The notes beneath the pieces were generated by a model that saw only the letters and a list, made by a program, of their open reading frames with translations, was not told where the DNA came from and searched no databases. Shown here piece after piece: positions 6,733 to 56,488 of a stretch of DNA of 56,488 nt. Within the stretch, counting starts at the first letter, position 1. Every line of letters starts with the position of its first letter. The DNA comes from an uncultured Bacteroidales bacterium (GTDB taxonomy: Bacteria; Bacteroidota; Bacteroidia; Bacteroidales; WCHB1-69), in contig ONCM01000014.1 of NCBI GenBank assembly GCA_900316305.1, positions 1 to 56,488 on the forward strand, written 5' to 3'. The position numbers and the translations under genes were made by a program.

Positions 6733-9700
6733 TTACCTTCTGTCCACGATAATTTTGCCAGTCACGGTCTTGCCGTCGTCCAGGAGAACCTTGACCACAT
6801 AATGGCCGGTGGCGAAACCGGTGACGTTGAGGCGAGCTTGCTCAGGAGTGTCGGGATCGGCGATGAGGACAAGCCGTCCGCTGAGGTCGTACACGTGGAT
6901 GCGGCTCATGCGCTCGCCGGCGATGTTGAGAACCGCCTGCGTGGGATTCGGGAAGAAGGAGAACTCCGGTGTCATCTCAAACTCTTCGATGCCGTCGTTG
7001 AAGGCGACAATCAAGGTAAGGTGCACGACAGAGTCGCAGTTGGCAACGGTGTAATACTGGATGTCGTAGTGGAAGGTGCCGCTGTCAGAAGGCGTGACAA
7101 CGAAGTTGTCGTACTGGTACTCGTGCCCGTTGATGGCGGAGTCGGAGACGAAGACTTCGTAGGTCGGGTTGACGGTGAGGTGCAAGACATAGACCGAGTC
7201 ACAACCGTTGGCGGTGGTGAGGCTGTCATAGTAGGTGCCCGCAGCGACGAACTCGCCTCCGTGCCAAGCGAAGGGCACGTTCTCGCAGGTCTCGGCGGTG
7301 GTCTCGAAGAAGTAGGTCGGCAGGACATTGAGGACGAGGTTGACGATGCTGTCACAGCCGTTGGCATTGGTCAGCGTGAGCTGAGCGTAAACCGTACCGG
7401 ACGCAGAGGCAAGGGTGTCAAAGCCGTTTTGCGTGTAATATCCACCTTGGCAGATTGTGTCGTAAATGGTGATTGTATTGCTTTGATTAACTGTGAGCTG
7501 CAGCTCATAGACGTCGTTACAGCCAAAGGCATTGGACACCGTGTCGAAGTAGGTGCCGGCAGCAGGAATCAGATAACCACGCCAACTGTAAGGCAACATG
7601 GTGTTACATACGGTGTCACTGGTTGTCACGTGGCTTGACGGATTGACGGTGAGCGTGAGAGCGAAAGTGCTGTCACAGCCGTTGACAGTGGTCATCGTGT
7701 CATAGTAGCTGCCACTCTCAGTAAGTGACTGCCCGTGCCACAGGTACGGCAGGTCATAGTCGCAGACAGTCGCGGTATTCGTGACATGGTACGACGGGTT
7801 GACGATCAACGTAAGCCGATAGATACTGTCGCAGAGATTTGCGGTCTGGTTGTAGTCCTCACGGAAACCTGCTTCGTTGAGGGTCATGCCGTGCCATTGG
7901 TAAGGCAGCTCGTCACTGCAAATGGTGACGGTGTCGTGGAAGAGGTAGGTCGGATTGACCGTGACGGTGACCTCATGGATTTCGCGGCAGCCGGTGATGG
8001 CACTGGTGATAGTGTCACGGTATATGCCGCTCTCGCTGAGGGTCATGCCACGCCAATCTTGGGTCTCGCCCTGACATAGCACAATCGGATTATTGACAAT
8101 GAGTTGCGTCTCGTTGACGGTGAGTTGCAGACGATAGACGCTGTCGCAGCCGTAGAAAGAGACAAGGGAATCCGTGTAAACGCCGGTCTCGGTCAATGAC
8201 ATGCCGCGCCAGAGATACGGGAGCTCGTGGTCGCAAACATTGTCGGTCTCCGTTATCAGATACTCTTGAGCCTGATGGATGGTGAGGGTGACAATGCTGT
8301 CGCAAAGACCGTCGCGGTGGAAAGTGATGGGATAGACGCCCTCAGCGCTGAAGGATGAACCGCCGTAAACCACCGGAAAGTCGGATGCGCAGACGAACAG
8401 CTCGTCAACGCCCTGTGCCGTGGGAATCACAGTGAAGTGGACGGAGATGAGGCTGTCACAGGTGTTGGCGGCGGGGAAGTGGATGTCGTAGTCGCCGCTC
8501 TCGGTCATCGTGGTGGTGCCATATGTGTAGGGCAACGTCTCCTGACAGACAGTGACAGTGTCATAGCCATGATAGGTTGGGTTGACGATAAGAGTGAAGT
8601 GCGTGATGGAGAGACAGTTGTCATCGTCAGTCTCCGTGATGTCGTATTCGCCAGCGGACTCAAACTGCTGTCCCATGTAGGTGAAGGGGAGTTCGCTGTC
8701 GCAAATGGTCTGGGAGAAGGTGTGCTCGGCGTTCGGAGTAACTGTGAGATGGAGGTTCCAGATACTGTCGCAGCCGCTGGCTGTCAGCAGGTTGACGGTG
8801 TAGATGCCCGTCTGATTGAAAACGTGGCTCTCATCAAAGTGATAGGGAAGTGCGCCTTGACAGACAGAGACGGTGGTGTCTTGCACGTACGTGGGATTGA
8901 CGTTGAGGTGCAAATGGATGATGCTGTCGCAGCCGTTGACGGTTTGGAACGGGATGTCGTAGTCGCCGCTCTCAATGTATGAGTATAGATCGTTGTCATT
9001 CCAGATAAACGGCACCAGATTTTCACAGATGTTGACGGTGGTGTCGATGCTGTAGGTCGGGTTAACTGTCAAATACAACGTGACAGTGCTGTCACAACCG
9101 CTTGTGGAGGTGAAGTGGTATTGAACCACGGACAATGCCGGAGTGCCAACTTCAAAGACGGTGTCGCCGTAGGTGTAAGGCAGTTCGTTGTCGCAAATCG
9201 TGATGTGCTCGTCTGTGGCCAAAGACTGGTTGATGGTCAGATGCAGGATCACCGTGCTGTCACAACCGAAGACGTTCTCGAAATGCTGCGTATAGTCGCC
9301 AGTTTCATCATACGTTTGGTCGTTCCAAGTGTAAGAGACACAGGCGATATGTGAAATATGAACCGTGTCGGTGGGGTTGATGGTCAGGTGCAGTGTCACC
9401 GCACTGTCACAACCGAGGATGTTTTCGAAATGTTGCGTATAAACGCCAGATTGATAGTAGGTTGTGTCGTTCCAAGTGAATTCAGCGCAAACGGTGGTGT
9501 CGAATTCGCTTGCACTGGTCGGCAGAATCACCAAATCCAGGATGACAACGCTATCACAATGGTGGACGTTTTGCAGCGTTTGGGTATAAACGCCAGATTG
9601 CTCGTATGTTTCATTGTTCCAAGTGAAGGAACCGCAGGCGGTGTCGGCCAGCATGGTGGTGTCCGGTTGCAGAATGGTCAGGAGCATGGTCACGATACTG

Positions 9701-43463: not shown

Positions 43464-45905
43464 ATGACAGACAAACTACAATATATCGCCGGTCAGATTG
43501 CTAGAGAGAATATGAACGCGGAAATTGTACCGGCACACCTATTCAAAGCATTGCTGAACAAAGATTTCGGTCTTGTTCCTGTTATAGAGAAAGACCTGAA
43601 TTGTGATTACTATTATATCTTGGATTGGGTGGATATGCAGATTCGCGGCTGCGAGAAATCCATGTCCGCTATCTCCGAACCTCCGCTGTCCGATGCGGCA
43701 GAGGAGGTGTTCCGTGAGGCAGATAATTATCGTTTGAAACTGGACGAGGAGGAACTCACCCCGCTCTGCTTTTTCGCTTCGCTGATCACCCCGGGGGTCG
43801 GTTTTTCGTTTGAACAGCTGAAGACGTTTCCTATCAATGTCAACCAGTTGTTGGCGTTGAAAGGTGCGCCAACATATAGTAATATTGTAGAGACGGCCGG
43901 TCCGGTTAACCCTTCATCCACCTCAAGCCTTGGCAAATATTGTATATGTAAAAACGAGGAACGGCAGAAAGGACAGTCACAGGTGGTGATTGGTTTTGAA
44001 CACGAAATTTCAGTCTTCTTTGAGATACTGGGTCGGAAAACAAAGTCAAATCTGATGATTACGGGTGAATCTGGCGTGGGAAAATCCGCGCTGGTGAATG
44101 GCTTCGTTGACCGTATTCTCAGCGGGGACGTACCCTCTTTCCTGAAAAACGCTCAAGTTTTTGAGCTGGATCTGGCTCTTCTTTCCGCCGATGCCAACTA
44201 CAAGGGCGAGATGGAGGACCGCTTCAAGGGTGTGTTAAACGACATCAGACAGCAGGAGTGCGCTATCCTTTTTATTGAATCCGTCGATAAGCTGATGGAC
44301 AAGAATGGTATGTTCTACGGACTATCCAATCTGCTGAAACAGGAACTCAACCGGCAAAATTTGATGCTGATATGCACTTCTTCCATAGACGGTTACACGA
44401 AGAATATCGAAACAGACAAGGAGTTCGTGCGGAAGTTCGAGGTCATCCGACTCGAAGAACCCAATGTCGAACAATGCTTCCGCATTATCCGTGGTAGCGT
44501 TGATACGTACGAAAAATATCACGAAATTACCGTTGCCGACCAAGTTATCCATGATGCCATCCGTCTGGCGAAACGGTACTTGAACGACAAATCACTTCCC
44601 GATTCCGTGTTCGATCTCATCGACCGAACCATGGCTCTAATCAAGACGATGAACGATGTTTCAACTCAGGACATTGCCACTTTGCAGCAGAAACTGGATA
44701 CGTTAACGGCACAGGAGTCCTCAGAGACAATCGCCACAGAACTGAACTGGCTGCATTACGAGATTTTCAATAAGGTCAGCTGTCTGCTTATGGCGCAGCT
44801 GGACGATGAGACCGATTTTGCGAAAATAGGGAGTGTTCAAGATAAAATCACGTACCTTAAAGATATATTGTCAACTCTTGCACGTTTGAGCGAAACGAAA
44901 CGTACTTCGCTGGAAAGCAGTGATTTGTACGCCGTAATAGCGCGGCAGACGGGCATCCCGATGGGCAAGGTGCAGTCGAAGGAGCGAGACAAGCTCACCA
45001 ATGCCGAGGCTACATTGCGCAAGCGTGTGGTGGGTCAGGATCACGCCATTAAGGTCATTCTCGATGCGGTGTATGAATCCCGTTCTGGTCTGAACAAGAA
45101 AGGGCAGCCTATGGGCTCGTTCTTCTTCCTCGGTCCTACGGGTACGGGTAAAACCGAACTGACGAAGGCCTTGGCGGAATTTCTCTTCCAAGAAGAGGCC
45201 GCCATGATTCGTTTCGACATGTCCGAGTTCAAGGAGGAGCACTCCGTCGCGTTGTTGTACGGCGCGCCTCCGGGCTACGTAGGTTACGAGGAGGGCGGTC
45301 TGTTGGTCAATAAAATCCGTCAGAAACCCTATTCTGTCGTGCTTTTCGATGAAATCGAGAAGGCACACCGCTCCGTTTTCGACCTGTTCTTGCAGATTCT
45401 GGATGAGGGCAAGCTGCACGACCGTCTCGGCAGGGTAGGTGACTTTTCCAACGCCCTCATCATCTTCACCTCCAATATCGGAAGCCAGTTCATTGTGGAT
45501 TCCTTCGGAAAGGGAGAAATTCCGAAAAGTACTGACCTGATGGAGATTATGCAGGGCAACTTCCGTCCTGAGTTCTTGGGCCGTCTGACTGAAATTGTGC
45601 CGTTCTCGCCCATCACCGAGAAGATTGTCACCATGATTTTCGACATCCACCTCAAAGGTTTGGTGAAACTGCTGGACGAGCAGAATATCGGACTGCAGAT
45701 CGATGACGAGACGAAGCGGAAGATTGCGATGAAGGGCTACAACGCCCAGTTCGGTGCGCGTCCCATTATCGGCATCATCCGCAAGGAGTTGCGCCGCCCA
45801 CTGTCGAAGATGATCATTTCCGGACAGTTGGAGAGCGGCGACACGGCGGTGGTGACGACAAAAGATGACGAAATCATCATCACCGCACAGAAAAGTCAGC
45901 AATAG
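43464..45905 (+). CDS. clpV: Type VI secretion ATPase ClpV (TssH)
   Basis: This 813-residue Hsp100 AAA+ protein disassembles the contracted TssB/TssC sheath for reuse. The N-terminal double Clp-N-like domain is at ~1-145. The first AAA module has Walker A GESGVGKS (K207) and a Walker B-like region ECAILFIESVDKL. The second has GPTGTGKTEL (K563), the Walker B region SVVLFDEIEKAHRSVFDLFLQILDEG and a D2 small domain to ~800. Walker B of module 1 reads FIES rather than the usual DE, which suggests a degenerate first ATPase site. It is followed by TssB and TssC, so it belongs to type VI and not to general proteolysis. Confidence 0.92.
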   Translation: MTDKLQYIAGQIARENMNAEIVPAHLFKALLNKDFGLVPVIEKDLNCDYYYILDWVDMQIRGCEKSMSAISEPPLSDAAEEVFREADNYRLKLDEEELTPLCFFASLITPGVGFSFEQLKTFPINVNQLLALKGAPTYSNIVETAGPVNPSSTSSLGKYCICKNEERQKGQSQVVIGFEHEISVFFEILGRKTKSNLMITGESGVGKSALVNGFVDRILSGDVPSFLKNAQVFELDLALLSADANYKGEMEDRFKGVLNDIRQQECAILFIESVDKLMDKNGMFYGLSNLLKQELNRQNLMLICTSSIDGYTKNIETDKEFVRKFEVIRLEEPNVEQCFRIIRGSVDTYEKYHEITVADQVIHDAIRLAKRYLNDKSLPDSVFDLIDRTMALIKTMNDVSTQDIATLQQKLDTLTAQESSETIATELNWLHYEIFNKVSCLLMAQLDDETDFAKIGSVQDKITYLKDILSTLARLSETKRTSLESSDLYAVIARQTGIPMGKVQSKERDKLTNAEATLRKRVVGQDHAIKVILDAVYESRSGLNKKGQPMGSFFFLGPTGTGKTELTKALAEFLFQEEAAMIRFDMSEFKEEHSVALLYGAPPGYVGYEEGGLLVNKIRQKPYSVVLFDEIEKAHRSVFDLFLQILDEGKLHDRLGRVGDFSNALIIFTSNIGSQFIVDSFGKGEIPKSTDLMEIMQGNFRPEFLGRLTEIVPFSPITEKIVTMIFDIHLKGLVKLLDEQNIGLQIDDETKRKIAMKGYNAQFGARPIIGIIRKELRRPLSKMIISGQLESGDTAVVTTKDDEIIITAQKSQQ

Positions 45906-45976
45906 CCATGTGTCTTCAAAAATTGTTTCAACTATTTCAAAATAAATCAAATAAGAAAGTTCAAAAACCCCGTAAT

Positions 45977-46438
45977 ATGTTAAAAGAAAATTTTATTTCA
46001 CAAGCACCAGATGAAGAATCCAATGCGAAAGTGACTCCGTTGGACAACAACAAAACCATCATCATTGACCAATACACTTCCGACATCGAAGTGGGCAACT
46101 CCGAACTTTTTGAGGGTGCCAAGACGATGCAGGACGTTTTCAACCATTTCAAACCTACTGTAGATGTAGAGTTTGAGGATGAACAGGGTGGCATTGTCTC
46201 CGAAAAGCTCCATTTCAATGAGATGCGTGATTTCGAAGCAAACGGTGGCAAGGGCAATCTGGTCGCCAACAGCCAGTTCCTCTCCGGCGCGAAGTCGAAA
46301 GTCGATGTGTCTGCCAAAATCCGCAAGCAGATCGAACAGAATCGTCGCCTCCGTGACATCCTGAAGGATGCCGAAGGCAAAGAGGAACTCAAAGAGCTGT
46401 TAGAGGCGTTGTTACAAGAAATTAAAGAACAAAAATAA
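45977..46438 (+). CDS. tssB: Type VI contractile sheath small subunit TssB
   Basis: The protein has 153 residues from the ATG at 45977 (MLKENFISQAPDEES); an earlier in-frame ATG at 45908, three bases after clpV, would add 23 basic residues. TssB (VipA) forms the sheath with TssC around the Hcp tube. The central pattern VFNHFKPTVDVEFEDEQGG and FNEMRDFE is that of TssB, and the C-terminus is a charged helix (LRDILKDAEGKEELKELLEAL). It is followed after nine bases by TssC. Confidence 0.9.
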   Translation: MLKENFISQAPDEESNAKVTPLDNNKTIIIDQYTSDIEVGNSELFEGAKTMQDVFNHFKPTVDVEFEDEQGGIVSEKLHFNEMRDFEANGGKGNLVANSQFLSGAKSKVDVSAKIRKQIEQNRRLRDILKDAEGKEELKELLEALLQEIKEQK

Positions 46439-46447
46439 TCCAAGACT

Positions 46448-47815
46448 ATGAGCGATCCGAAATTACAAGAACAGAAAGTGCAGTCCACCCAGCAGACTGC
46501 CGAATATAAAAGCGAATCGAAAGAAAAGAAAGACATTTCGTCATTATTGTCGAAGTTTGGCGGCTTTTTGGCTGTGAAGAGCTTTATTCCTGCGGCGGAA
46601 GACCTTAATCCCGCTAAAAAGGCAGCCCGCAATATCTTTCTGACCGAGGCACGTTTCAAAGAGAAACGTGAGAGCCTCGCCAAAGAGCTGGAAGGCTGGA
46701 TTGAGCTGTTAGACAGTGGCAAGACCACGGCTTCTGAATACGTAGATGCTTGCAAGGAAAAAGAAGCCAAGTACCAGCAACTGCTTAATAAAGGCATCAC
46801 CGTGGCGTTGGACGAGACCCATAAATTGGAGACCTCTTACCGCGCTTTGGATGCCTTCTTCAAGAATGCGGAGACCGACCGCGTGGATAACCTCAAGTTG
46901 ATCAATGTCAACAAGGAGGACATCGCGGATCCTAACTCAGAATTCGCTGGTGAGGTTGATCAGTTGCTGAAGAACGCCTTTGACCGTTTGAGTCTTAAGG
47001 ATAGCTACAGCTTGTTGGTGGTGCCTGGCTATGTCTTCCAAGACAAACCGACATTGCTGAAATGGGCGAAAATCGCCTTCAAATACAAAGTGCTCCTCAT
47101 CACCGACCATGCCGATGAGATGAGTTTCGAGGACCTTCGCGACAACACGGCGGACTACCGCGACAGCGACCAAGCGCTGCAGAACGTGGTGATGACCGCC
47201 AACTGGATTGTGGGCCGCGAATCGGAGAAACTTTCTGATTTGGAGAAAGATGATCCGGCGTTCTATATTCCTCCGGCAGCTGCTTTGGCGGGCAAACTCT
47301 ACGACGAGAGCGCGAATATGGCGCAAGGTGCCGGCGGCAAGAAGTACGGTACCCTCAACGAAGTGAAAGGTGTGCGTAACGACCTGCTCAAGTCGGAAAT
47401 CGCCGCTCTCATGGACAATCAGGTGGTGCCGATGGTCTTCTCCGAAGGTCGCGTCATGGCATTCAATAACACCACCCTCTACAACGGTGACAACGATGCG
47501 ATGAAAGAGTATCCCATCGTGCGCGTGTTCGACTGGGTGAAGAAAGTGCTGATGAACTACGTCCACGAGGTCGCGTTGGAAAACTGGGATCCCTATAACT
47601 CTCCTGATAACCTCAAAAACAAGATTCAGGACTTCTTGAACCAATATCAGGGCTATGGCAACTTGTTCCAACGTTATGAGATCAAGGAACCCAAACAGGA
47701 TCCTGTCACCAAGCGCATCACGGTCGATATTTCACTGACACCCTACTACGCCGCCAAGAACTTCATTATCAAGCTCGCTGCGGACAAGAAGACCAAAGAG
47801 TGCGAAACTGAGTAA
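46448..47815 (+). CDS. tssC: Type VI contractile sheath large subunit TssC
   Basis: The protein has 455 residues, the length of the Bacteroidota form (DUF5458 type). It follows the family pattern through an N-terminal helical part (~60-130), LETSYRALDAFFKNAE, the LLVVPGYVFQ region and the C-terminal sheath core (YEIKEPKQDPVTKRITVDISL, then TPYYAAKNFIIKLAAD). It assembles with TssB into the contractile sheath in the cytoplasm. It is in the same operon as TssB, with Hcp following after 43 bases. Confidence 0.93.
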   Translation: MSDPKLQEQKVQSTQQTAEYKSESKEKKDISSLLSKFGGFLAVKSFIPAAEDLNPAKKAARNIFLTEARFKEKRESLAKELEGWIELLDSGKTTASEYVDACKEKEAKYQQLLNKGITVALDETHKLETSYRALDAFFKNAETDRVDNLKLINVNKEDIADPNSEFAGEVDQLLKNAFDRLSLKDSYSLLVVPGYVFQDKPTLLKWAKIAFKYKVLLITDHADEMSFEDLRDNTADYRDSDQALQNVVMTANWIVGRESEKLSDLEKDDPAFYIPPAAALAGKLYDESANMAQGAGGKKYGTLNEVKGVRNDLLKSEIAALMDNQVVPMVFSEGRVMAFNNTTLYNGDNDAMKEYPIVRVFDWVKKVLMNYVHEVALENWDPYNSPDNLKNKIQDFLNQYQGYGNLFQRYEIKEPKQDPVTKRITVDISLTPYYAAKNFIIKLAADKKTKECETE

Positions 47816-47858
47816 ATACCAATTAATCACCTTTTTATAAACCTAAATTTTAATCATT

Positions 47859-48251
47859 ATGGCAACTACACCTGTACAATTAAAAGTTGACGGCTTCACC
47901 GATCGTGAAGTGATGATGGTAACCTATTCTTTCAATCAGGCAACTGACACCGAAGGACAAATGGCCGGCATCCCGAGAGGCGGCCGCATTACCGTCCGTG
48001 TCAAAGCTCTCAATGACGGCAATCCCGATCTGTTGAAGTGGATGACCTCCCCGAACCTTGGCAAGAATGGTTCCATCGTCTTCAATGAAACTAAGACAGG
48101 CAACCAGATGAAGACCATTGAGTTCACCGATGGCTATTGCGTCGATTTTGTCGAATATTGGGAGGACAAGATGGGACACTATGAGGAAATCACCATCTCC
48201 TGCCGCGAAATCAAGAACGGTCCGGTTTCCTATCACAACCAGTGGGCATAA
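47859..48251 (+). CDS. hcp: Hcp / TssD tube protein 1
   Basis: The protein has 130 residues. TssD-type Hcp forms hexameric rings that stack as the inner tube and can carry effectors. The family pattern of Bacteroidota TssD is clear: MMVTYSFNQATDTEGQ, PRGGRITVRVKALNDGN, LLKWM and a closing HYEEITISCREI. It is separated from the second Hcp gene by a strong hairpin, so its transcript is probably more abundant than the downstream part. Confidence 0.92.
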   Translation: MATTPVQLKVDGFTDREVMMVTYSFNQATDTEGQMAGIPRGGRITVRVKALNDGNPDLLKWMTSPNLGKNGSIVFNETKTGNQMKTIEFTDGYCVDFVEYWEDKMGHYEEITISCREIKNGPVSYHNQWA

Positions 48252-48266
48252 ACCCATTGTGGGTCA

Positions 48267-48301
48267 AACTACAAGTGGCTTGCTGAAAGCCACTTGTAGT
48301 T
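48267..48301 (+). terminator. Hairpin between the two Hcp genes
   Basis: A perfect 15-bp stem (AACTACAAGTGGCTT / AAGCCACTTGTAGTT) with loop GCTGA, 16 bases after the stop of Hcp1. The following ATTGTTTC is a weak T-run, so partial termination or mRNA end protection is likely. Confidence 0.75.
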
Positions 48302-48328
48302 ATTGTTTCATTTAAAAGCATACAGTAT

Positions 48329-48727
48329 ATGGCATTAACAGCTACTCTGGTCATTGAAAACAAGGAATACATCATTCTGGAGTGTGAATACGAGTTTACA
48401 CAGGCGGTGGACCACACGGGACGACCGACCGATCGCACCCGAGGCGGATTGATTAACGTCGTCATTGCCGCTCCGGGGAACGACAATCTTGTCCTGCACG
48501 AATGGATGCGCGATAAAGATGCTGTAAAAGATGGCACCATCAACTTGACAATCAACAGTGACAATGTTGACAAGCCCAAGACCATCCAATTCAAGGATGC
48601 CTATTGCGTCAGGCTGTATGAGTATTTCAACAGCAACAATTCCGTGCAGATGTACCTGAAGCTGTCGATTATGGCGGGTACGGTCATCTTCGGGGATGAC
48701 TGTGAATTTACATTGATAGACAAATAG
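48329..48727 (+). CDS. Hcp / TssD tube protein 2
   Basis: The protein has 132 residues. It shares the TssD layout with Hcp1 (ILECEYEFTQAVDHTGRPTDR, GGLINVVIAA, LHEWM, YLKLSIMAG) but is clearly divergent. It starts the VgrG part of the cluster, eight bases upstream of VgrG. Likely it is a specialised Hcp at the tube tip or a cargo carrier for the effectors that follow; this is inference. Confidence 0.88.
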   Translation: MALTATLVIENKEYIILECEYEFTQAVDHTGRPTDRTRGGLINVVIAAPGNDNLVLHEWMRDKDAVKDGTINLTINSDNVDKPKTIQFKDAYCVRLYEYFNSNNSVQMYLKLSIMAGTVIFGDDCEFTLIDK

Positions 48728-48735
48728 TTACTGCC

Positions 48736-50739
48736 ATGCCTGTACCCACCGAACAACTGTTTTCCATCACCATTGGCGGCAAAAGCTATGATGACTACGT
48801 CTTCACGGATTTTGTGTTGACCAAAGAGCTATTGAAACCCAATGAGCTGAAATTTGCCATGCGGAAAAAGTCCGTGATGAAGACCGATCAAGACGTGGCG
48901 TTTTCCATTTCCAACGAGTTGTTGGGTGCGACTGTCAAGTTGCAGGTCAAAACTAATCGTCGCGACCAGTCGGAGAATATCTGTTCGGAAGAGCTTAGCT
49001 TCGAAGGCGTTATCTGCAATCTCACTTCCCAACGGCAAACCATGTCGCAAGGAATGTTGATTCAGGTCACGGCCTACAGTCCCGACTATTTCCTCATCGA
49101 CAACCCGCACTGTTACTCTTTTGAGAACAAAACCTTGAACACCATCATCAAGGAGGCAGTGAACAATCCTGAACCCGCACATTCGATTAACCTGCATTTG
49201 GATCCGAAAATGGATCAGGAGATTCCGTATGTAGTTCAGTATAATGAGAATACCTACCAATTTATCGCTCGGTTGGCGCAGCGCTACGGCGAATATTTCT
49301 ATTACGAGGACAGCAGGCTGGTCTTTGGGAAGGTGAAACCCCATCCGGCAATCACGCTGCATCCTGACACGGATGTGCTCGCCTACCACTACGATTTGGC
49401 GATGGACCATCCGCGATTTGCACATGGGCATCACAACTATTTGGAATATGAGAATTACTATGATGAAGCAGCTGGCTATACCGAGCAGTCGCAACACAAG
49501 CTCACCGACTACGTGTATGCGCACTCGAAGGATGCGTTTGTCAAGCCGACGCTTCAGAACCTGCACGCCAGTGTGCAGGAAGACAACGACATAGACCAAC
49601 TGCAGGAGTCGGTGAAGGCACAAGGGTTCGGGGCGAGGTCGATGATGATGACTTGTACTTTGACCACCAACCGCGCCGACGTTAAGTTGGGCTCCAAGAT
49701 TACGATTACGGAGGCTGCAGACCAGAACGACGGTTCGGTGAAAATCACGAATCATGAGGAATTGTTGGTGGTGCGGGTGGTTTGTCGCGGCACCCTCAAC
49801 GGCCATTTTGAGAACGAACTGACGGCCATTCCCGCCAAGGCCGAATATCCGCCCTACGCCAATTGCGACGTCTATCCCGTCACCGAGATGCAGCGGGCGA
49901 TGGTGAAGGACAACAAAGACCCCGAGGCGTTGGGGCGCATCCGGGTGCAGTTTTCGTGGCAGGAGTTGCAGGATGAGAACATGTGGACCCCGTGGCTGCG
50001 GATTGCGCAGGCGCACGGTGGCGATGACAAAGGCAGCTACATCATCCCCGAGATCGACGAGGAGGTGATGGTGGGCTTCGAGAACGGCAATGCCGAGAAG
50101 CCGTATGTGATCGGCACCTTGTATCACGGCAAGCAGCGTCCGGGCGACGGCTGGTACAGCGACAGCAACGACATCAAGGCTTTCCGCACGCGCAACGGTC
50201 ACACCGTGGAGGTGCACGACGTGGACCAGGGCGGCTTCATCCGCATTTACGACAACGGCAAAGAGAACTACATCCTCACGTACTCCACCGACGAAAAGCT
50301 CATCAAGCTCGAATCCAAAGGCAACATCGAACTCTACGCCGACAACGACATCATTATGGAGGCCGGGAACGACATGAAGATCAAGGTGGGAAATAACCGG
50401 ACATTGGAGGTGGGCAGCAACGACACCGTGGATGTAGGCAAGGACCAGAGCATCCGGGTGGCCGAGAATATGACCGAGGATGTAGGCGATGACAAGACCC
50501 AGACCACGGGTCGGAACTACTCGCAGAGCGTGGGCGAAAATTCGGACATTGAGATTGGTAACAACGCCAAGACCGTGGTGGCCGAGAAGAACACGTTGAA
50601 GGCCAACAATATATTGCAAGTGTCGGAGCACAAGACGCAAATGTATTCCGACACCACCGAGCAGAAAGCCGACAGCTCATTAAAGATTGACGGTGGCAAC
50701 AGTGCGGATATTCATGCGGAAATGGTAAGAATCAGTTAG
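48736..50739 (+). CDS. vgrG: Type VI tip protein VgrG
   Basis: The protein has 667 residues. The gp27-like base is at 1-370 (IQVTAYSPDYFLIDNPH; FIARLAQRYGEYFYYED). The gp5 OB-fold is at ~379-470 (DPEALGRIRVQFSW, WLRIAQAHGGDDKGSYIIPE, PYVIGTLYHGKQRP). From ~485 the needle consists of short beta repeats of the form D-V-G-x-D / T-V-x-V-G. It has no C-terminal effector domain, so the effectors are encoded separately. It is followed directly (two bases) by the PAAR-like gene. Confidence 0.95.
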   Translation: MPVPTEQLFSITIGGKSYDDYVFTDFVLTKELLKPNELKFAMRKKSVMKTDQDVAFSISNELLGATVKLQVKTNRRDQSENICSEELSFEGVICNLTSQRQTMSQGMLIQVTAYSPDYFLIDNPHCYSFENKTLNTIIKEAVNNPEPAHSINLHLDPKMDQEIPYVVQYNENTYQFIARLAQRYGEYFYYEDSRLVFGKVKPHPAITLHPDTDVLAYHYDLAMDHPRFAHGHHNYLEYENYYDEAAGYTEQSQHKLTDYVYAHSKDAFVKPTLQNLHASVQEDNDIDQLQESVKAQGFGARSMMMTCTLTTNRADVKLGSKITITEAADQNDGSVKITNHEELLVVRVVCRGTLNGHFENELTAIPAKAEYPPYANCDVYPVTEMQRAMVKDNKDPEALGRIRVQFSWQELQDENMWTPWLRIAQAHGGDDKGSYIIPEIDEEVMVGFENGNAEKPYVIGTLYHGKQRPGDGWYSDSNDIKAFRTRNGHTVEVHDVDQGGFIRIYDNGKENYILTYSTDEKLIKLESKGNIELYADNDIIMEAGNDMKIKVGNNRTLEVGSNDTVDVGKDQSIRVAENMTEDVGDDKTQTTGRNYSQSVGENSDIEIGNNAKTVVAEKNTLKANNILQVSEHKTQMYSDTTEQKADSSLKIDGGNSADIHAEMVRIS

Positions 50740-50741
50740 TT

Positions 50742-51407
50742 ATGGGAAGGATTTATGTTTGTAACGGAGCGCAGATGGTCTGCAGTATGGGAACAGGAAA
50801 TGCCATTTTGGTGGTATTGCCCGAACGTCGTATTCTGCTCGACGGGCAGCCGCAAGCCAACATCATGGATCACAAATCCATGACCAACATCCCTTCGTTC
50901 GGATTGTGTACCTCCTTGGCCAATCCAGTGGTGGCGGCGGCCACGGCTGCCCATCACGGTTGTCTGACCCCGATGCCGTGCGTGCCCAACACCACCTCTC
51001 CGTGGCAGAAAGGCCACGAGAAGCTGTTGTTGAAGAACTTCCCCGCCTTGTGCATGGACGACAAGCTGAGCTGCGCATGGGCGGGCACCATCACCATCGC
51101 CGACTGCGGCCAGGGCAAAGGCCAGGGTGCGTTCCCGCTCTCCAAAGATGGCGCGGATGGCGAGTTGTTGGACAAGCTGTTCTACAAGTGGGATGTGAAG
51201 ATTGCTGATGTGAAAGAATCAGTATGCTTACAAGTAAAATCGTTGAACAAAGAAAGGAATAGTGCAACATTTAAGCTGATAGATGTTGACACCGACGAAA
51301 TACTAAAGGAAATTACAGTCCAATTGGAGGACGGTGAAGGCTATTCCGATGAAATTATTGTACCCGAAGATTGGGAGTCAAGAACAATTAAAGCAGTGGA
51401 AATATGA
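50742..51407 (+). CDS. PAAR-like (DUF4280) spike tip with C-terminal extension
   Basis: The protein has 221 residues. The DUF4280 part (1-~130) has the pattern YVCNGAQMVCSMGTG, LCTSLANPVVAAATAA, PMPCVPNTTSPW and a late CGQGKGQG. This part should cap the VgrG needle. Residues ~150-221 form a beta domain (DVKESVCLQVKSLNKERNS) of lower GC content that does not belong to DUF4280. As the frame overlaps the next gene (ATGA, 51404-51407), it may be an adaptor that binds the peptidase that follows. This is inference. Confidence 0.85.
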   Translation: MGRIYVCNGAQMVCSMGTGNAILVVLPERRILLDGQPQANIMDHKSMTNIPSFGLCTSLANPVVAAATAAHHGCLTPMPCVPNTTSPWQKGHEKLLLKNFPALCMDDKLSCAWAGTITIADCGQGKGQGAFPLSKDGADGELLDKLFYKWDVKIADVKESVCLQVKSLNKERNSATFKLIDVDTDEILKEITVQLEDGEGYSDEIIVPEDWESRTIKAVEI

Positions 51408-52270
51408 ACGGAGATACCTTACCTATCAAAACTTTATATGGTGATCCTGTGGATAATCCGAAGATTAGACAGGATGGCATTTTAGATGCCATTAATTCCA
51501 TAAATATCGTTGATTTGACCGAATCTATTGTCTTTGACTATAATCTGATTGTAGGTTATTATGGAAACACCAGAAGATACTCCAATGGGAACCTGAAAAA
51601 ACATTCTGGTTTTGATTATCTTGCGCCCAAAGGAACCCCTGTTAAATCTGTTCATAAAGGAAATGTCGGCTGGGTTAGAATTGGTGTTACAAAAGAGATG
51701 GAGACTTGTAAGGTAAGACAGAGAATACTGAATTCAGGTGCCAATAAGGAAAATAGTTTTTCTGAAATGGATTGCAAACAATGCAAAAGTAGCAGTAATT
51801 GTTATGGAGTTCAAGTATGGTTAAGCTGGATCGAAACCCATGCTGGGAAAAAAATAACACATTATGCCTTTTATGCCCATTTGTCAAAATTAGATGATAA
51901 AATATGGAATGGCATTAAAGACAAAATTGCAAAGGATACTATTGATTACAATCCTGGAATAAAAATTGGTGCAATAGGCGAGTTGATTGGTTATTCGGGT
52001 TGTACAGGGAATGCCTATGACATGAAGGATTATCAGCAGCATCTTCATTTTGAATGTTTGGATGCTAGTTTAAAAAAACAAGACCCCAATACTATTGTAA
52101 AAACAAAATTTGTATTAGCAAAGCAACTTGGAGATGTTGACCGAGATAGAGGAGAAATGCAGAATAAGGTCTTTCAGCCTTTCTTAAATAATAGTATTTC
52201 TTTGGAAGAGTTTAGAACAATACTAAGGACTTTTGACGAGAAAAAAGAAACATATATTATACAGAAATAA
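51404..52270 (+). CDS. M23-family peptidase, probable type VI effector
   Basis: The protein has 288 residues without signal peptide. The LytM/M23 fold is at ~65-230 with zinc ligands and signature: KHSGFDYLAPKGTPV (H-x3-D), YAFYAHLS, GYSGCTGNAYD and QQHLHFE (HxH). Such enzymes cut peptide crosslinks of peptidoglycan. The C-terminal 60 residues are not M23. Absence of an export signal and translational coupling to the PAAR-like gene suggest delivery by the VgrG tip. A central insert (~100-125) has a cysteine cluster (DCKQCKSSSNC). Base composition is much more AT-rich than VgrG, a sign of transfer. Confidence 0.85.
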   Translation: MNGDTLPIKTLYGDPVDNPKIRQDGILDAINSINIVDLTESIVFDYNLIVGYYGNTRRYSNGNLKKHSGFDYLAPKGTPVKSVHKGNVGWVRIGVTKEMETCKVRQRILNSGANKENSFSEMDCKQCKSSSNCYGVQVWLSWIETHAGKKITHYAFYAHLSKLDDKIWNGIKDKIAKDTIDYNPGIKIGAIGELIGYSGCTGNAYDMKDYQQHLHFECLDASLKKQDPNTIVKTKFVLAKQLGDVDRDRGEMQNKVFQPFLNNSISLEEFRTILRTFDEKKETYIIQK

Positions 52271-52285
52271 AATAATATTAATGAT

Positions 52286-53782
52286 ATGGGAGTCCAACAA
52301 CTATCGGGAAGCGATGCTGGAAAAGTTGAAGCTGGGGGTAATATTGATGCAAGATGTATTGTAGAATTCCGGCCAATAGTTCATAATAGCGGAAGTGGTT
52401 ATGAGTGGAGGGGACAGTATGGTTTTGATTGGTTTCGAATAAGTGATTGTGAGGAATCTGGTCATATTACTCATTATGTTGACGAACATCTTGTTGGTAT
52501 TTATACAGACCAACATGATAATCGTTTTGTGAACGGAAGTACTACAGATCCCGACAATAAAGATTACGACAATAGGAGGTATTTTAAATATAATGCTAAT
52601 ATTAATGGCACAACCAAAAACGATTATTTTGCTGATAAACTAGTCAGATATTACACATATAAAGAAATTTCTGGATTAAGATTAAGGAGAAGAAATTATA
52701 TTATCCCATGGATTAATTTGGCCGAAGGTTCACTCATTAAAATAAAAATGATTATAAAAGATGATTCTACTAAAGTTGAGAATGTTAAAAGAATCAGAGT
52801 CGTTTCAGCTGGAGACCATATTAAATTTGGTATAGACAATAAGAAGGTAGAATCACATGGCAAAGTTGTCTTAAATTACATCGATTTTGATGGATCTTTT
52901 ATAAAAGGTCAAGAAATCGAGTTGTTTATTTGGTATTATAAACAGATACCGAATAATTGTGATAATTGGGAAATAAAAGTTTACGCCTATTATGATGATA
53001 ATTACCTCAATAATAATGGATTTGATAAAGAGTATCACACTCTTGCAGGATTGTTGAATTTTGTAAATAATGGTCCATTGACAGTGGATATTTGGTTTAT
53101 TCCTGTTTTTACCCAAACAGATGATGTTTGCTCAAATCCTTCAATAGGTGATGGTCGACAAAATGACGGACAAGGAGCAAATCTTGATGCGCAAAAAGAG
53201 AATTTACGAAAGTTTTTGGCTCAAACACTTGTTGTACCGAATTTTAAAGATGAAGAAATCAATGGGAATAGTAAAAATGTCTTTGTATGTTTGAATTCAA
53301 CACCATATATTGTTAATAATAGAGGAGAAAACGGATTACATAGAAAAGGTAATGATCTATTGGAAGAGTTGCTAAGACTTTTTGAAAATGAATATGGCAA
53401 TGATGACGCATTTAAAGTTTTTTTTATAAACCAAGTAGGGTTTAGTGGGAATTATGTTGGAGTTCAATCGAGTGATTATTATAAAATCAGTGGACACGCT
53501 TTAGATATTCCTTCTAAATCAGCTGTGATATTCCAAGATTCAATTAATTCGACTGTGTCACACGAGTTACTGCATTGTTTTGGACTATACCATAGTTTTT
53601 CAAATAATAACTACAAAAAAAATAATGTAGGAAATCATGATGGTTTTACATTTGAGAAATGTAAAACAAGCAACATAATGGATTATCCGTCTTCAATAGA
53701 TAGAATTAGTTTGTGGAGATGGCAGTGGGAAAAAATAAGGAAGGAAATTGAGAGAAGGCAGAATCAGCATGGCAGATTTTAA
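52286..53782 (+). CDS. Metzincin-like zinc protease, probable type VI effector
   Basis: The protein has 498 residues without signal peptide. HELLHCFGLYH (H426, E427, H430, H436) is the extended metzincin zinc motif HExxHxxGxxH, and NIMDY with M465 is a fitting Met-turn. The first 350 residues are a beta-rich part that I do not recognise (GHITHYVDEH, KFGIDNKKVESHGKVVLN). It follows the M23 gene by 15 bases and is equally AT-rich. A protease toxin delivered to rival cells or a self-processing factor are both possible. Its start codon is supported by the close gene order only. Confidence 0.82.
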   Translation: MGVQQLSGSDAGKVEAGGNIDARCIVEFRPIVHNSGSGYEWRGQYGFDWFRISDCEESGHITHYVDEHLVGIYTDQHDNRFVNGSTTDPDNKDYDNRRYFKYNANINGTTKNDYFADKLVRYYTYKEISGLRLRRRNYIIPWINLAEGSLIKIKMIIKDDSTKVENVKRIRVVSAGDHIKFGIDNKKVESHGKVVLNYIDFDGSFIKGQEIELFIWYYKQIPNNCDNWEIKVYAYYDDNYLNNNGFDKEYHTLAGLLNFVNNGPLTVDIWFIPVFTQTDDVCSNPSIGDGRQNDGQGANLDAQKENLRKFLAQTLVVPNFKDEEINGNSKNVFVCLNSTPYIVNNRGENGLHRKGNDLLEELLRLFENEYGNDDAFKVFFINQVGFSGNYVGVQSSDYYKISGHALDIPSKSAVIFQDSINSTVSHELLHCFGLYHSFSNNNYKKNNVGNHDGFTFEKCKTSNIMDYPSSIDRISLWRWQWEKIRKEIERRQNQHGRF

Positions 53783-54315
53783 TGAAAAAGTTGATTATGA
53801 AAGATAGGGAAAAATTTGATTTGGTCTATTACATGACTCATAGAGAGTATGGTACTGCCAGTTTCCGTCAAGATTCAAGCACAATTTATTTGTTTGAATT
53901 TAACGAGGAATACGTCAAACAGATTGTGCCTGATTACCCTGAAATGGTTTGTATACAATCGAATTATTATTCAGACACATTGACGATAAAAACAAAAGGG
54001 CAGTTCTTAAAACACGGCGGTGTCGGCATAGGAGAATGGGAATATTACAAAGAGGATGGTGCACTAAACCATAAAAAGGATAAAGACGAGCATTTTCCCA
54101 TCAAATGGGAGCAGCTGGAGCAGATTCTCAAAAATAGGGACATCTCCCTGCTCACGGTGGACTCCATCTTCCGCTACTATGATGAGGAAAAAGACCTTGC
54201 CACATGGTCCATTATCATCAAGCTTACGTGGGACTCCGGATGCCTCTACGTCTTCGATGCCCGCACCGGCGAGTTGCTGTCGAAGGAGATTATTGATATG
54301 AGAAAGGAAATGTAA
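53782..54315 (+). CDS. Hypothetical cytoplasmic protein, candidate immunity
   Basis: The protein has 177 residues with no signal peptide. It begins within the stop codon of the protease gene (TAATG, one-base overlap), which is typical of an effector-immunity pair. The middle has a MORN-like GIGEWEYYKEDGAL and the C-terminus a short beta-hairpin (DSGCLYVFDARTGELLSKE) that is PepSY-like. The first 300 bases are AT-rich, and the last 220 are GC-richer, as if two sources were joined. No family is recognised. An immunity function is inferred from position alone; a periplasmic toxin target would require export, which is not seen. Confidence 0.6.
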   Translation: MKKLIMKDREKFDLVYYMTHREYGTASFRQDSSTIYLFEFNEEYVKQIVPDYPEMVCIQSNYYSDTLTIKTKGQFLKHGGVGIGEWEYYKEDGALNHKKDKDEHFPIKWEQLEQILKNRDISLLTVDSIFRYYDEEKDLATWSIIIKLTWDSGCLYVFDARTGELLSKEIIDMRKEM

Positions 54316-54338
54316 AATCAAAATAAATTAATAGAGTT

Positions 54339-54662
54339 ATGCTTAATATTTTTAAAAGAAAATTGATTGTTGTCAAAAACATCAACAAACAGAAAACGGG
54401 TGAAGAACATGTAATTGATGTTGCTACAATGGATTTAGCCACAGGAGGTATTGAAGTCCATTTTGCAATACCTGTTATTTACAAAAAAGTATTTGAGGGG
54501 GTCGCTTTTTATGTTGAGTGTCGTCCCGGGTCTTTGCCTGCAAATATTCTTTCATCTGGAAACTCTTCGCCGATTGCACATCTTGATAATGTTTTTATCG
54601 CAAGAGGTTATTCTTCTTGTAACAAGTTAAGTGAGAGAGATATAGAGCTGTTTGTTAAATAG
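54339..54662 (+). CDS. Hypothetical protein (107 residues)
   Basis: It has no signal peptide or membrane segment. The sequence alternates beta-type stretches (LIVVKNINKQKTGEEHVIDVATM, FEGVAFYVECRPGSL) and has no known motif. It lies 23 bases after the previous gene and is AT-rich. It may be a further cargo-linked gene. Confidence 0.55.
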   Translation: MLNIFKRKLIVVKNINKQKTGEEHVIDVATMDLATGGIEVHFAIPVIYKKVFEGVAFYVECRPGSLPANILSSGNSSPIAHLDNVFIARGYSSCNKLSERDIELFVK

Positions 54663-54723
54663 TGATGTTACGGAACGATTTTATTTTATAAAACCTGCAA
54701 TCCCTATAGCTTAACAACAGAGT

Positions 54724-55698
54724 ATGCAACCCTTAGCACCCATAACCAAAACCGAGTTTCTTGAATTCTTCAAGAATGCGGACAGATATGTGAAGTTCAA
54801 CTATATTGAGCAGGAGACGTTCTTCTGCAATATGGTGTATGTGATGGGGGTGACAAAGAAGGTTATGCCTATGGAATCCAAGTCCACGCTGGAGAAATTC
54901 GATGAGGCCCTGTTCCGAAGGGGCGTGATGACCTTTTTGAGGTCAATGGAACCTGAAAACTGGCGGAAGTTCGACAATTTGTCGGAAAAGATGCAGGCGG
55001 ATGCCAATAGCCACCTTTTTGCAGCGGGAACAGATTTGGCAGGTATTGTCATAGGAGAGGCTGTAGGCGGGGCGGCAAAAAAAATGACCAAATCCATTTC
55101 TCGCCCTTATAGAAAAACAGCTGCATTTATCGGGAAACCCGAAGGAAATAATATGAAGGTGATGTATAACAGACTGGATGGGACAAAAGATATTGTTAAT
55201 AGAGTGGAGGTGAAAGCCAATCTTAAGACAAGTAATAGTGTTTGGGGAACAGACGTGCTTGATTGGAAAAAATTTGGCAGAACGGATATTGAAATAGAGT
55301 TCGCATTAGATCCAAACGAAGTATTATTTAATCATGAGATTGGAAAAGGAGTAGAATATGTGCACCAAAATGTCGCACCAGGCGGGCGCTTCTCTTTCGG
55401 AGACACTGTAATGGGCGAAAAAATGGACGTGGTCACGGATTATGTCCCATATCTGGGCAAGGCTAAAGCCTTTGTTTCATCGGTGGCCAATCTTGCCATC
55501 GGCTGTGTTTATTCCAAATCTGCCGACCGACTTGCACAAATCGAAGGGGCGGGAAAGGCAGCCACGCGGGAATACATCCAAACCCACTTGTGTGTGGATG
55601 TAGAGAAAGATTTGAAAGCCTTGGACAAGAAAACATTGTTCAGAATGTTGCAGTTCGTCCCGGAAATAGACAATAGACCTGTAGAATTAAGAAAATAA
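54724..55698 (+). CDS. Hypothetical protein, possible further effector
   Basis: The protein has 324 residues and no signal peptide. It has a mainly helical N-terminal half and a hydrophobic, Gly/Ala-rich stretch GTDLAGIVIGEAVGGAAKK at ~100-118, like membrane-inserting segments of some toxins. A second hydrophobic patch lies at ~235-255 (AFVSSVANLAIGCVYS). The central part is beta-rich. I do not recognise the family. Being the last gene of the type VI run, it could be an effector or a modifier; this is a guess. Confidence 0.55.
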   Translation: MQPLAPITKTEFLEFFKNADRYVKFNYIEQETFFCNMVYVMGVTKKVMPMESKSTLEKFDEALFRRGVMTFLRSMEPENWRKFDNLSEKMQADANSHLFAAGTDLAGIVIGEAVGGAAKKMTKSISRPYRKTAAFIGKPEGNNMKVMYNRLDGTKDIVNRVEVKANLKTSNSVWGTDVLDWKKFGRTDIEIEFALDPNEVLFNHEIGKGVEYVHQNVAPGGRFSFGDTVMGEKMDVVTDYVPYLGKAKAFVSSVANLAIGCVYSKSADRLAQIEGAGKAATREYIQTHLCVDVEKDLKALDKKTLFRMLQFVPEIDNRPVELRK

Positions 55699-55711: not shown

Positions 55712-56488
55712 ATGAAGCAGTTATACAAGATAATGGCCTTGTTTTTGTTGCTGGCGGTGGCCGGCGGACAGTGCGGCTATGCAATGAATGACACCATCAT
55801 TGTCAGGAACTACACGGACACCACCGTTTGCGAGAGTTATGTTTGGTATGATACAACATTCATCGAATCGGGGAACTATGCACATCCCCTTGATACTGTC
55901 GGTGATACTATTCATGTGGATTCGTTGTACCTGACTATCAATTACAGTGTTGAAACTACAAAATACGACACTGCCTGTGATAGTTTCATTTGGGATGGCG
56001 ATACTTTAACGGAATCTGCTGTAATTATTCGAACTTACACTGCTGCAAACCAATGTGATTCCGTGGTGACGCTATATTTGACCATCACACCGACCTCCAC
56101 TTATGAGTTCTCTGCCACTGGTTGTACCAGCTACCAGTGGAACGACTCTATCTACTACCAATCTGGCGATTATGTCCAGCACTTCAACAACGTTTACGGT
56201 TGCGACAGCATTGTCACCCTGCATCTTACCATAAATCAACCTTCCACCACTGACATCTCCGTGACTGAATGCGGAAGTTTTACATGGCATGGTAAAAACT
56301 ATACGCAATCTGGTGACTACACCGATACGCTGACCAATGCGGCACAATGCGACTCCATCATTACGTTGCACTTAACCATCCATCACGGCACACATAATGT
56401 TGAAATTGAGACTGCTTGTGAAGGTTTCTCATGGCATGGAATAACCTATGATGTTTCAGGTGTTTATATTCATCCATATACTAATGAT
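55712..56488 (+). CDS. Giant repeat protein, N-terminal part (continues beyond window)
   Basis: The first 259 codons only. The signal peptide MKQLYKIMALFLLLAVAGGQCG is followed immediately by GCDS-type repeats: ACDSFIWDGD...NQCDSVVTLYLTI, then GCTSYQWNDSIYYQSGDY...YGCDSIVTLHLTI, and a third ending in QCDSIITLHLTI. It lacks the jelly-roll and Ig-like N-terminal part of the two giant proteins at the left. One repeat is also about 80% identical at base level to repeats at 1-270 on the opposite strand. It starts 13 bases after the stop of the preceding gene. Confidence 0.85.
   Translation, partial: MKQLYKIMALFLLLAVAGGQCGYAMNDTIIVRNYTDTTVCESYVWYDTTFIESGNYAHPLDTVGDTIHVDSLYLTINYSVETTKYDTACDSFIWDGDTLTESAVIIRTYTAANQCDSVVTLYLTITPTSTYEFSATGCTSYQWNDSIYYQSGDYVQHFNNVYGCDSIVTLHLTINQPSTTDISVTECGSFTWHGKNYTQSGDYTDTLTNAAQCDSIITLHLTIHHGTHNVEIETACEGFSWHGITYDVSGVYIHPYTND

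What the first reader, a model, noticed from the sequence alone, without database searches (positions are those of the whole stretch)
51404..53782. Paired peptidoglycan peptidase and metzincin-like protease as tip cargo
Two zinc peptidases of different classes follow the PAAR-like gene in tight order. One (M23) should cut cell wall crosslinks. The other has the full HExxHxxGxxH and Met-turn. Neither has a signal peptide. Both are markedly AT-rich compared with VgrG, indicating acquisition as a cassette. The metzincin may process the other or attack envelope proteins, which would be an unusual two-step effector pair.
Basis: partly seen in the sequence, partly recalled or inferred. Interest (0 to 1): 0.7.

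Follow-up and report, generated by a model that had tools for sequence, protein, structure and literature searches.

The report
T6SS metzincin effector with immunity gene
Two different zinc peptidases sit behind the tip genes of a bacterial injection machine; the second belongs to a family of probable injected proteases that travels with its own protective partner gene, and the two peptidases look like separate cargoes rather than a matched pair.

The parts
48736..50739 (+). VgrG spike (667 aa)
   Evidence: Phage_base_V 2e-22, Phage_GPD 7.6e-14, Gp5_trimer_C 2.4e-11
50742..51407 (+). DUF4280 PAAR-like spike tip (221 aa)
   Evidence: PF14107 1.9e-30; NCBIfam IglG 9.4e-8 but under its cut-off
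51404..52270 (+). M23 peptidase without signal peptide, probable second cargo (288 aa)
   Evidence: PF01551 1.9e-7; subfamily in 4 of 393 genomes of the order at E <= 1e-25, all beside or fused to DUF4280 and all seeds of the profile; DUF4280 and M23 in one ORF in L030
52286..53782 (+). metzincin effector (498 aa): N-terminal region about 20-260 with FRP...GFDW motif, metzincin domain 260-497
53782..54315 (+). o177, predicted cognate immunity protein (177 aa), no signal peptide here; MORN_2-like stretch plus a weakly PepSY-like C-terminus in relatives
   Evidence: family directly follows a metzincin gene in 31 of 34 loci; distances co-vary, Mantel r 0.607; Pfam MORN_2 in 9, RHS_repeat in 4 and PepSY in 3 of 34 members at E <= 0.1, none in o177 itself
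54339..54662 (+). o107, unknown, AT-rich, no signal peptide
   Evidence: no family hit; GC 0.349
54724..55698 (+). o324, unknown, no signal peptide
   Evidence: no family hit
43464..48727 (+). T6SS core: ClpV, TssB-like, TssC, two Hcp/TssD
   Evidence: TssD 2.2e-28 and 2.4e-31; window ClpV, TssB and TssC match genes of other T6SS loci; naming of these three by order and recall

Best explanation
The metzincin is a T6SS tip-delivered effector and the next gene, o177, encodes its immunity protein. The N-terminal region (FRP..G.YGFDW.R, with G46, D48 and W49 in 35 of 36 aligned relatives) is kept whether the protein is free or fused behind VgrG or Hcp; I infer that it positions the effector on the spike. 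The C-terminal metzincin domain is inferred to cut a protein in the recipient. In most of the family the partner has an export signal, often with a lipobox-like Cys, so the target is most likely in the periplasm or at the outer membrane. In the window's Bacteroidales clade the partner is cytosolic, so there the protease is either held inactive in the producer before firing or reaches a cytoplasmic target. The M23 protein is a separate cargo of the same VgrG/DUF4280 tip, most likely a peptidoglycan endopeptidase. Shown here: motifs, predicted fold, fusions, conserved gene order, co-variation. Inferred: secretion, proteolysis, toxicity, neutralisation, target.
Against: 9 of 34 loci show no VgrG, Hcp or DUF4280 by profile (L070, L071, L072, L073, L075, L088, L089, L090, L094). 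Of these L070, L072, L090 and L094 have the gene or its neighbour at a contig edge, and L072 begins in a VgrG-like tail; L071, L075, L088 and L089 have about 8.8 kb or more upstream without one, L073 3.9 kb. Three loci (L085, L088, L089) lack the immunity neighbour, and so do second copies in L077 and L080/L081. Two rumen relatives have an altered active site (L090 E to A, L095 H430 to K), so protease activity may not be essential in that clade. In the window and four rumen relatives the partner has no signal peptide. The immunity family also occurs away from metzincins (L135, L136, L137, L139, L140). Relatives of the M23 in L026/L027 carry signal peptides and sit before baseplate-like genes, and no exported immunity candidate for M23 was seen among the five ORFs examined. 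Neither protease activity nor secretion was tested.
Confidence: 0.77

Rival explanations
1. The two enzymes form a functional two-step effector: the metzincin activates the M23 or clears envelope proteins for it.
For: Adjacent genes 15 bp apart with similarly low GC.
Against: 0 of 34 metzincin loci show the M23 relative in the flanks held. Of three other M23 loci, L026 and L027 showed no metzincin; the genome of L030 has one about 18 kb away in a separate gene. In L093, L095 and L090 a cysteine-rich protein fills the M23 slot.
Confidence: 0.07
2. The M23 protein is not cargo but a T6SS-assembly peptidoglycan hydrolase, working like TagX of Acinetobacter.
For: Relatives in L026/L027 (44 and 40% identical) have signal peptides and lie before baseplate-like genes; no exported immunity gene beside it.
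Against: The window copy starts close to the catalytic region with no signal peptide and stops upstream; L030 has it in one ORF with the DUF4280 tip; only 4 of 393 genomes of the order have the subfamily at E <= 1e-25.
Confidence: 0.25
3. o177 is a loading chaperone or adaptor, not immunity, in the window clade.
For: No signal peptide in the window, L093, L095, L090, L094; L090 and L095 keep o177 relatives beside metzincins with an altered active site.
Against: 41 of 50 family members inspected have an export signal, which does not suit a cytoplasmic loader; extra copies beside toxin fragments in L065 and L076, and several copies in L070, fit immunity genes.
Confidence: 0.18
4. The metzincin is an ordinary exported or housekeeping protease that lies here by chance.
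For: Metzincin-like hits are common in the order: 98 of 393 genomes.
Against: Apart from the four seed proteins, the hits listed begin at profile position 312 or later, with one from 221, so they cover mainly the catalytic part; the family is fused to VgrG/Hcp or behind VgrG in 24 of 34 loci; no signal peptide.
Confidence: 0.04

Closest known systems
VgrG2b C-terminal domain / Tpe1-Tpi1 metallopeptidase effector-immunity pairs of Pseudomonas and Acinetobacter (PMC6899460, passages read)
   Same: Zinc metallopeptidase fused to VgrG; adjacent immunity gene, envelope-targeted, lipoprotein in some species; an antibacterial periplasmic toxin.
   Different: In the passages VgrG2b is described by HEXXH and a core metallopeptidase fold; ours has HExxHxxGxxH with a Met-turn. 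Ours is mainly Bacteroidota, and in the window clade the immunity protein has no export signal. The immunity proteins were not compared. The profile of A3 against PDB sequences listed metzincins and a few chance hits; absence there is not proof.
M23 T6SS peptidoglycan-hydrolase effectors of Acinetobacter (Tse4/Tpe4 and others, PMC6833914, passages read)
   Same: M23 domain in T6SS effectors.
   Different: The five with M23 in the passages are 674-848 aa with LysM and/or NlpD annotation; the window protein is 288 aa, little more than a catalytic domain, behind a DUF4280 protein.
Fragilysin/adamalysin/pappalysin metzincins
   Different: Those are exported with signal peptides and mostly prodomains (recalled); here there is no signal peptide and a shared T6SS-linked N-terminal region.
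Listeria prophage metzincin and TIMP-like lipoprotein pair (PMC8235301, abstract start in search listing only)
   Same: A metzincin gene paired with a lipoprotein resembling a metzincin inhibitor.
   Different: Gram-positive host; no sequence comparison made.
TagX, T6SS-assembly peptidoglycan hydrolase (PMC5061870, passages read)
   Same: Peptidoglycan peptidase encoded in a T6SS cluster.
   Different: TagX is a membrane-anchored L,D-endopeptidase of the LAS family; the window M23 has no anchor or export signal.

Membership tests
Metzincin clan | HExxHxxGxxH zinc motif | tested here: met
   HELLHCFGLYH 426-436
Metzincin clan | Met-turn after the zinc motif | tested here: met
   SNIMDY, M465; M in 31, L in 4, E in 1 of 36
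Metzincin clan | Metzincin fold | tested here: met
Metzincin clan | Zinc-dependent proteolysis | not testable with these tools
   needs an enzyme assay
T6SS cargo effector | Fusion to or adjacency with VgrG, Hcp or PAAR across relatives | tested here: met
   24 of 34 loci with VgrG or Hcp, one more with DUF4280; includes three near-identical pairs of loci
T6SS cargo effector | Conserved adjacent partner gene | tested here: met
   31 of 34 loci; that the partner gives immunity is inferred
T6SS cargo effector | T6SS-dependent secretion | not testable with these tools
   -
VgrG2b/Tpe metallopeptidase effectors | Sequence or fold kinship with VgrG2b C-terminal domain | tested here: inconclusive
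   not among the rows listed; whether that entry was compared is not known
VgrG2b/Tpe metallopeptidase effectors | Envelope-located immunity protein | tested here: not met
   o177 of the window has no signal peptide; most relatives' do. So not filed as Tpe.
M23 peptidases | HxxxD and HxH zinc motifs | tested here: met
   H67, D71, H213, H215; PF01551 31.6 bits, cut-off 28.7
M23 T6SS peptidoglycan effectors | Exported immunity protein nearby | tested here: not met
   none among the five ORFs examined from 51404 to 55698
TagX-like assembly hydrolase | Export signal or membrane anchor | tested here: not met
   signal peptides by eye in relatives L026/L027

The most novel reading that the evidence does not exclude
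A T6SS effector family uses the metzincin fold together with a dedicated inhibitor-like immunity family built from a MORN-like repeat and a PepSY-like (M4-propeptide-like) domain, and in a rumen Bacteroidales lineage the pair has changed compartment: immunity lost its export signal and moved to the cytosol, the effector grew, and in some members lost an active-site residue, becoming a pseudo-protease.
Probability: 0.3. Interest if true: 0.68.

Novelty: new variant of a known kind. Interest (0 to 1): 0.55.

Why it matters
Protease effectors of the T6SS are few (recalled). A metzincin family with its own probable immunity family, mainly in Bacteroidota and present as free, VgrG-fused and Hcp-fused forms, gives testable effector-immunity pairs from rumen, gut and environmental bacteria, and a natural experiment on where such a toxin acts (exported against cytosolic immunity).

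Tried and rejected
M23-metzincin as a conserved pair: rejected. A toxin-immunity swap in the window: metzincin identities favoured Kaistella and Apibacter while immunity favoured the rumen loci, but both trees place the window with the rumen loci, metzincin support 90/77 and immunity 74/81, neither starred; I set the swap aside as not needed, without excluding it. PepSY relation of the immunity protein: only weak (3 of 34 members at E <= 0.1; Mcp02 propeptide E 0.26); PepSY had no hit at E <= 1e-6 in 60 genomes, so I made no comparison alignment. MORN_2 is common (25 of 41 genomes at E <= 1e-4) and so says little. Viral contigs: no relatives of either protein. 100 genomes nearest the window: only its own matched, for both proteins. 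TssK by Pfam (PF05936) gave nothing in the own genome; a relative of L026's presumed TssF was found on contig C55, E 1.8e-10. PADLOC: nothing for five proteins. I at first read a chitinase-like part in the L030 fusion; Pfam did not show it at E <= 0.01 and I do not claim it. VgrG2b is not among the rows; that shows nothing. The fold of the N-terminal region was not tested on its own, and the fold of o177 could not be run. Foldseek proper was answered as busy.

Literature: in the rows listed (open-access library only, lists capped) I saw no paper that joins a T6SS effector with a metzincin. In passages of the three-architecture survey of gut Bacteroidales T6SS (PMC4714493) and the structural effector survey (PMC11148199) the search terms gave 0 'protease' and 0 'peptidase' in the first, and 0 'bacteroid' and 0 'metalloprotease' in the second.

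Full report
What is there. The right end of the window is part of a Bacteroidales T6SS locus: ClpV 43464-45905, TssB-like 45908-46438, TssC 46448-47815, two TssD/Hcp genes, VgrG 48736-50739 and a DUF4280 PAAR-like protein 50742-51407 (ClpV, TssB and TssC by order, recall and matches to other T6SS loci). The window ends inside a repeat surface protein at 56488. Four genes similar to genes that follow the PAAR-M23 block in L026/L027, which I take for baseplate genes from recall, lie on contig C55 (best E 6e-18), and an ORF at the end of that contig begins with the residues on which the window ends, so the locus very probably continues there. PF05936 (TssK) was not found in the genome.

The two peptidases. 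The M23 ORF overlaps the PAAR-like stop by four bases; the metzincin ORF follows 15 bp later, and the 177-aa ORF o177 begins on the last base of the metzincin ORF. Neither peptidase nor o177, o107 or o324 has a strongly hydrophobic N-terminus, and in-frame stops lie close upstream of both peptidases and o177. Pfam recognises M23 above its cut-off (31.6 bits against 28.7) in two pieces. For the window metzincin it gives only sub-threshold metzincin hits, and for o177 nothing. NCBIfam gives no hit over a cut-off for the M23, the metzincin or o177. Among 36 family members the best Pfam hits are metzincin models over the catalytic part (Astacin 1.8e-5, Reprolysin_5 4.7e-5; up to 17 members at E <= 0.1; whether any passes its cut-off is not shown).

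A family tied to the T6SS tip. Relatives are rare near home: of 100 genomes only the window's own matches either protein, and DUF4280 occurs in 10 of 393 genomes of the order, its own included. From loci around those DUF4280 genes I found three more metzincins with the GFDW motif near the N-terminus. Their alignment (A1) against the species genomes gave 34 loci: 31 in Bacteroidota (Pedobacter, Chitinophaga, Chryseobacterium, Flavobacterium, Dysgonomonas, Prevotella jejuni, gut and rumen MAGs and others) and three in Campylobacteraceae and Thiotrichales MAGs. Gene order in these loci: single ORFs join VgrG and metzincin in L065, L066 (two), L068 (two), L069 and L074; one joins Hcp and metzincin in L077, confirmed by Pfam (TssD 4.2e-22 and Reprolysin_5 8.5e-5). 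VgrG is directly upstream in L063, L064, L067, L078-L082, L084-L087, L091 and L092, and within three genes in L076, L083, L093 and L095. That is 24 of 34 with VgrG or Hcp, plus L096 with DUF4280. The other nine are L070, L071, L072, L073, L075, L088, L089, L090 and L094; L070, L072, L090 and L094 are at contig edges and L072 begins in a VgrG-like tail (Gp5_trimer_C E 0.0014). The 34 include three near-identical pairs, and two of the A1 seed loci.

The partner gene. In 31 of 34 loci a metzincin gene is directly followed by an o177 relative, with gaps of -98 to +44 bp over 31 pairs. Second metzincin copies in L077 and L080/L081 lack it. Pairwise distances of toxin and partner co-vary (32 pairs, Mantel r 0.607, 0 of 9999 permutations as high; shared ancestry contributes). 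Of 50 family members inspected, 41 have an export signal by a simple hydrophobicity rule, many with a lipobox-like Cys by eye; the nine without are the window, L024 and L093 (one locus), L090, L094, L095 and three fragments. Partner copies alternate with C-terminal metzincin pieces in L065 and L076, with one further piece in L077, and L070 has several copies: the picture expected of displaced toxins and kept immunity genes. The partner family is wider than the metzincins: among 393 genomes of the order, strong matches also occur without a metzincin in the stretch fetched (L135, L136, L137, L139, L140; L136 lies between DUF4280 genes and L139 has T6SS genes some kilobases away), as orphan immunity genes or relatives with other roles.

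The window's own clade. Window, L093, L090, L094 and L095 fall together in both trees with unstarred support. In this clade the partner has no signal peptide. The four relatives are longer (770-821 aa), two of them have lost a catalytic residue, and in L093, L095 and L090 a cysteine-rich protein lies where the window has M23; Pfam gave nothing for L093's and a sub-threshold CHCH hit for L095's, L090's was not scanned. I read this as a lineage in which the pair is being reshaped. That these are rumen genomes rests on the record titles and on recall for the RUG names.

The M23 protein. A search of 393 genomes of the order at E <= 1e-25 found the subfamily in four, all beside or fused to DUF4280; these four also seeded the profile, so only the lack of others is independent. 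In Dysgonomonas (G363, identified through identical loci) it is the C-terminus of a 1562-aa DUF4280 protein, which supports cargo. In L026/L027 it has a signal peptide and precedes baseplate-like genes, which fits an assembly enzyme. I put cargo at about 0.65 and assembly at about 0.25.

Composition. The metzincin gene has lower GC than VgrG in 15 of 15 loci with separate genes (-0.007 to -0.103). The window difference of -0.20 is outside this range, so recent acquisition is plausible but AT-richness alone does not show it.

Verdict. The M23-metzincin neighbourhood looks like a local meeting of two cargoes.

Changes made on re-checking: the number of near-full-length matches is 22, not 25 as I first wrote; statements on family libraries, and on the N-terminal motif were narrowed.

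Noticed in passing
L090 714-3026, L095 7913-10321: Relatives of the metzincin with an altered active site (E to A; zinc-ligand H to K) that still have their partner gene.
   Followed up: partly
L093 6764-7885, L095 6710-7909, L090 1-717: A cysteine-rich protein (373 and 399 aa, truncated in L090) sits between DUF4280 and the metzincin, in the slot held by M23 in the window; no Pfam hit over a cut-off in the two scanned.
   Followed up: partly
L076 12381-15851, L065 12073-14529, L070 1592-5652: Arrays of immunity copies, with C-terminal metzincin fragments in L076 and L065.
   Followed up: partly
L072; L073 and L075: Family members with signal-bearing partners in Thiotrichales and Campylobacteraceae MAGs, outside Bacteroidota.
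   Followed up: partly
window 55712-56488 and L104: Repeat surface protein with signal peptide at the contig end; its last residues recur at the end of contig C55, where further T6SS-like genes lie.
   Followed up: partly
window 54339-54662 and 54724-55698: Two unknown ORFs between the cassette and the surface protein, without family hits.
   Followed up: no
window 13001-14500: GC of 0.62-0.64 inside a 2876-aa minus-strand ORF, well above the window mean of 0.49.
   Followed up: no
L080 16612-18522 (same locus as L029): A second, more divergent metzincin of 636 aa in the same Dysgonomonas T6SS region, without the o177-type neighbour.
   Followed up: no
L138 (G357 C86) about 7165-8612: A C-terminal metzincin-like stretch with a stop inside (E 3.7e-14) just before an immunity-like match in a 557-aa ORF.
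   Followed up: no
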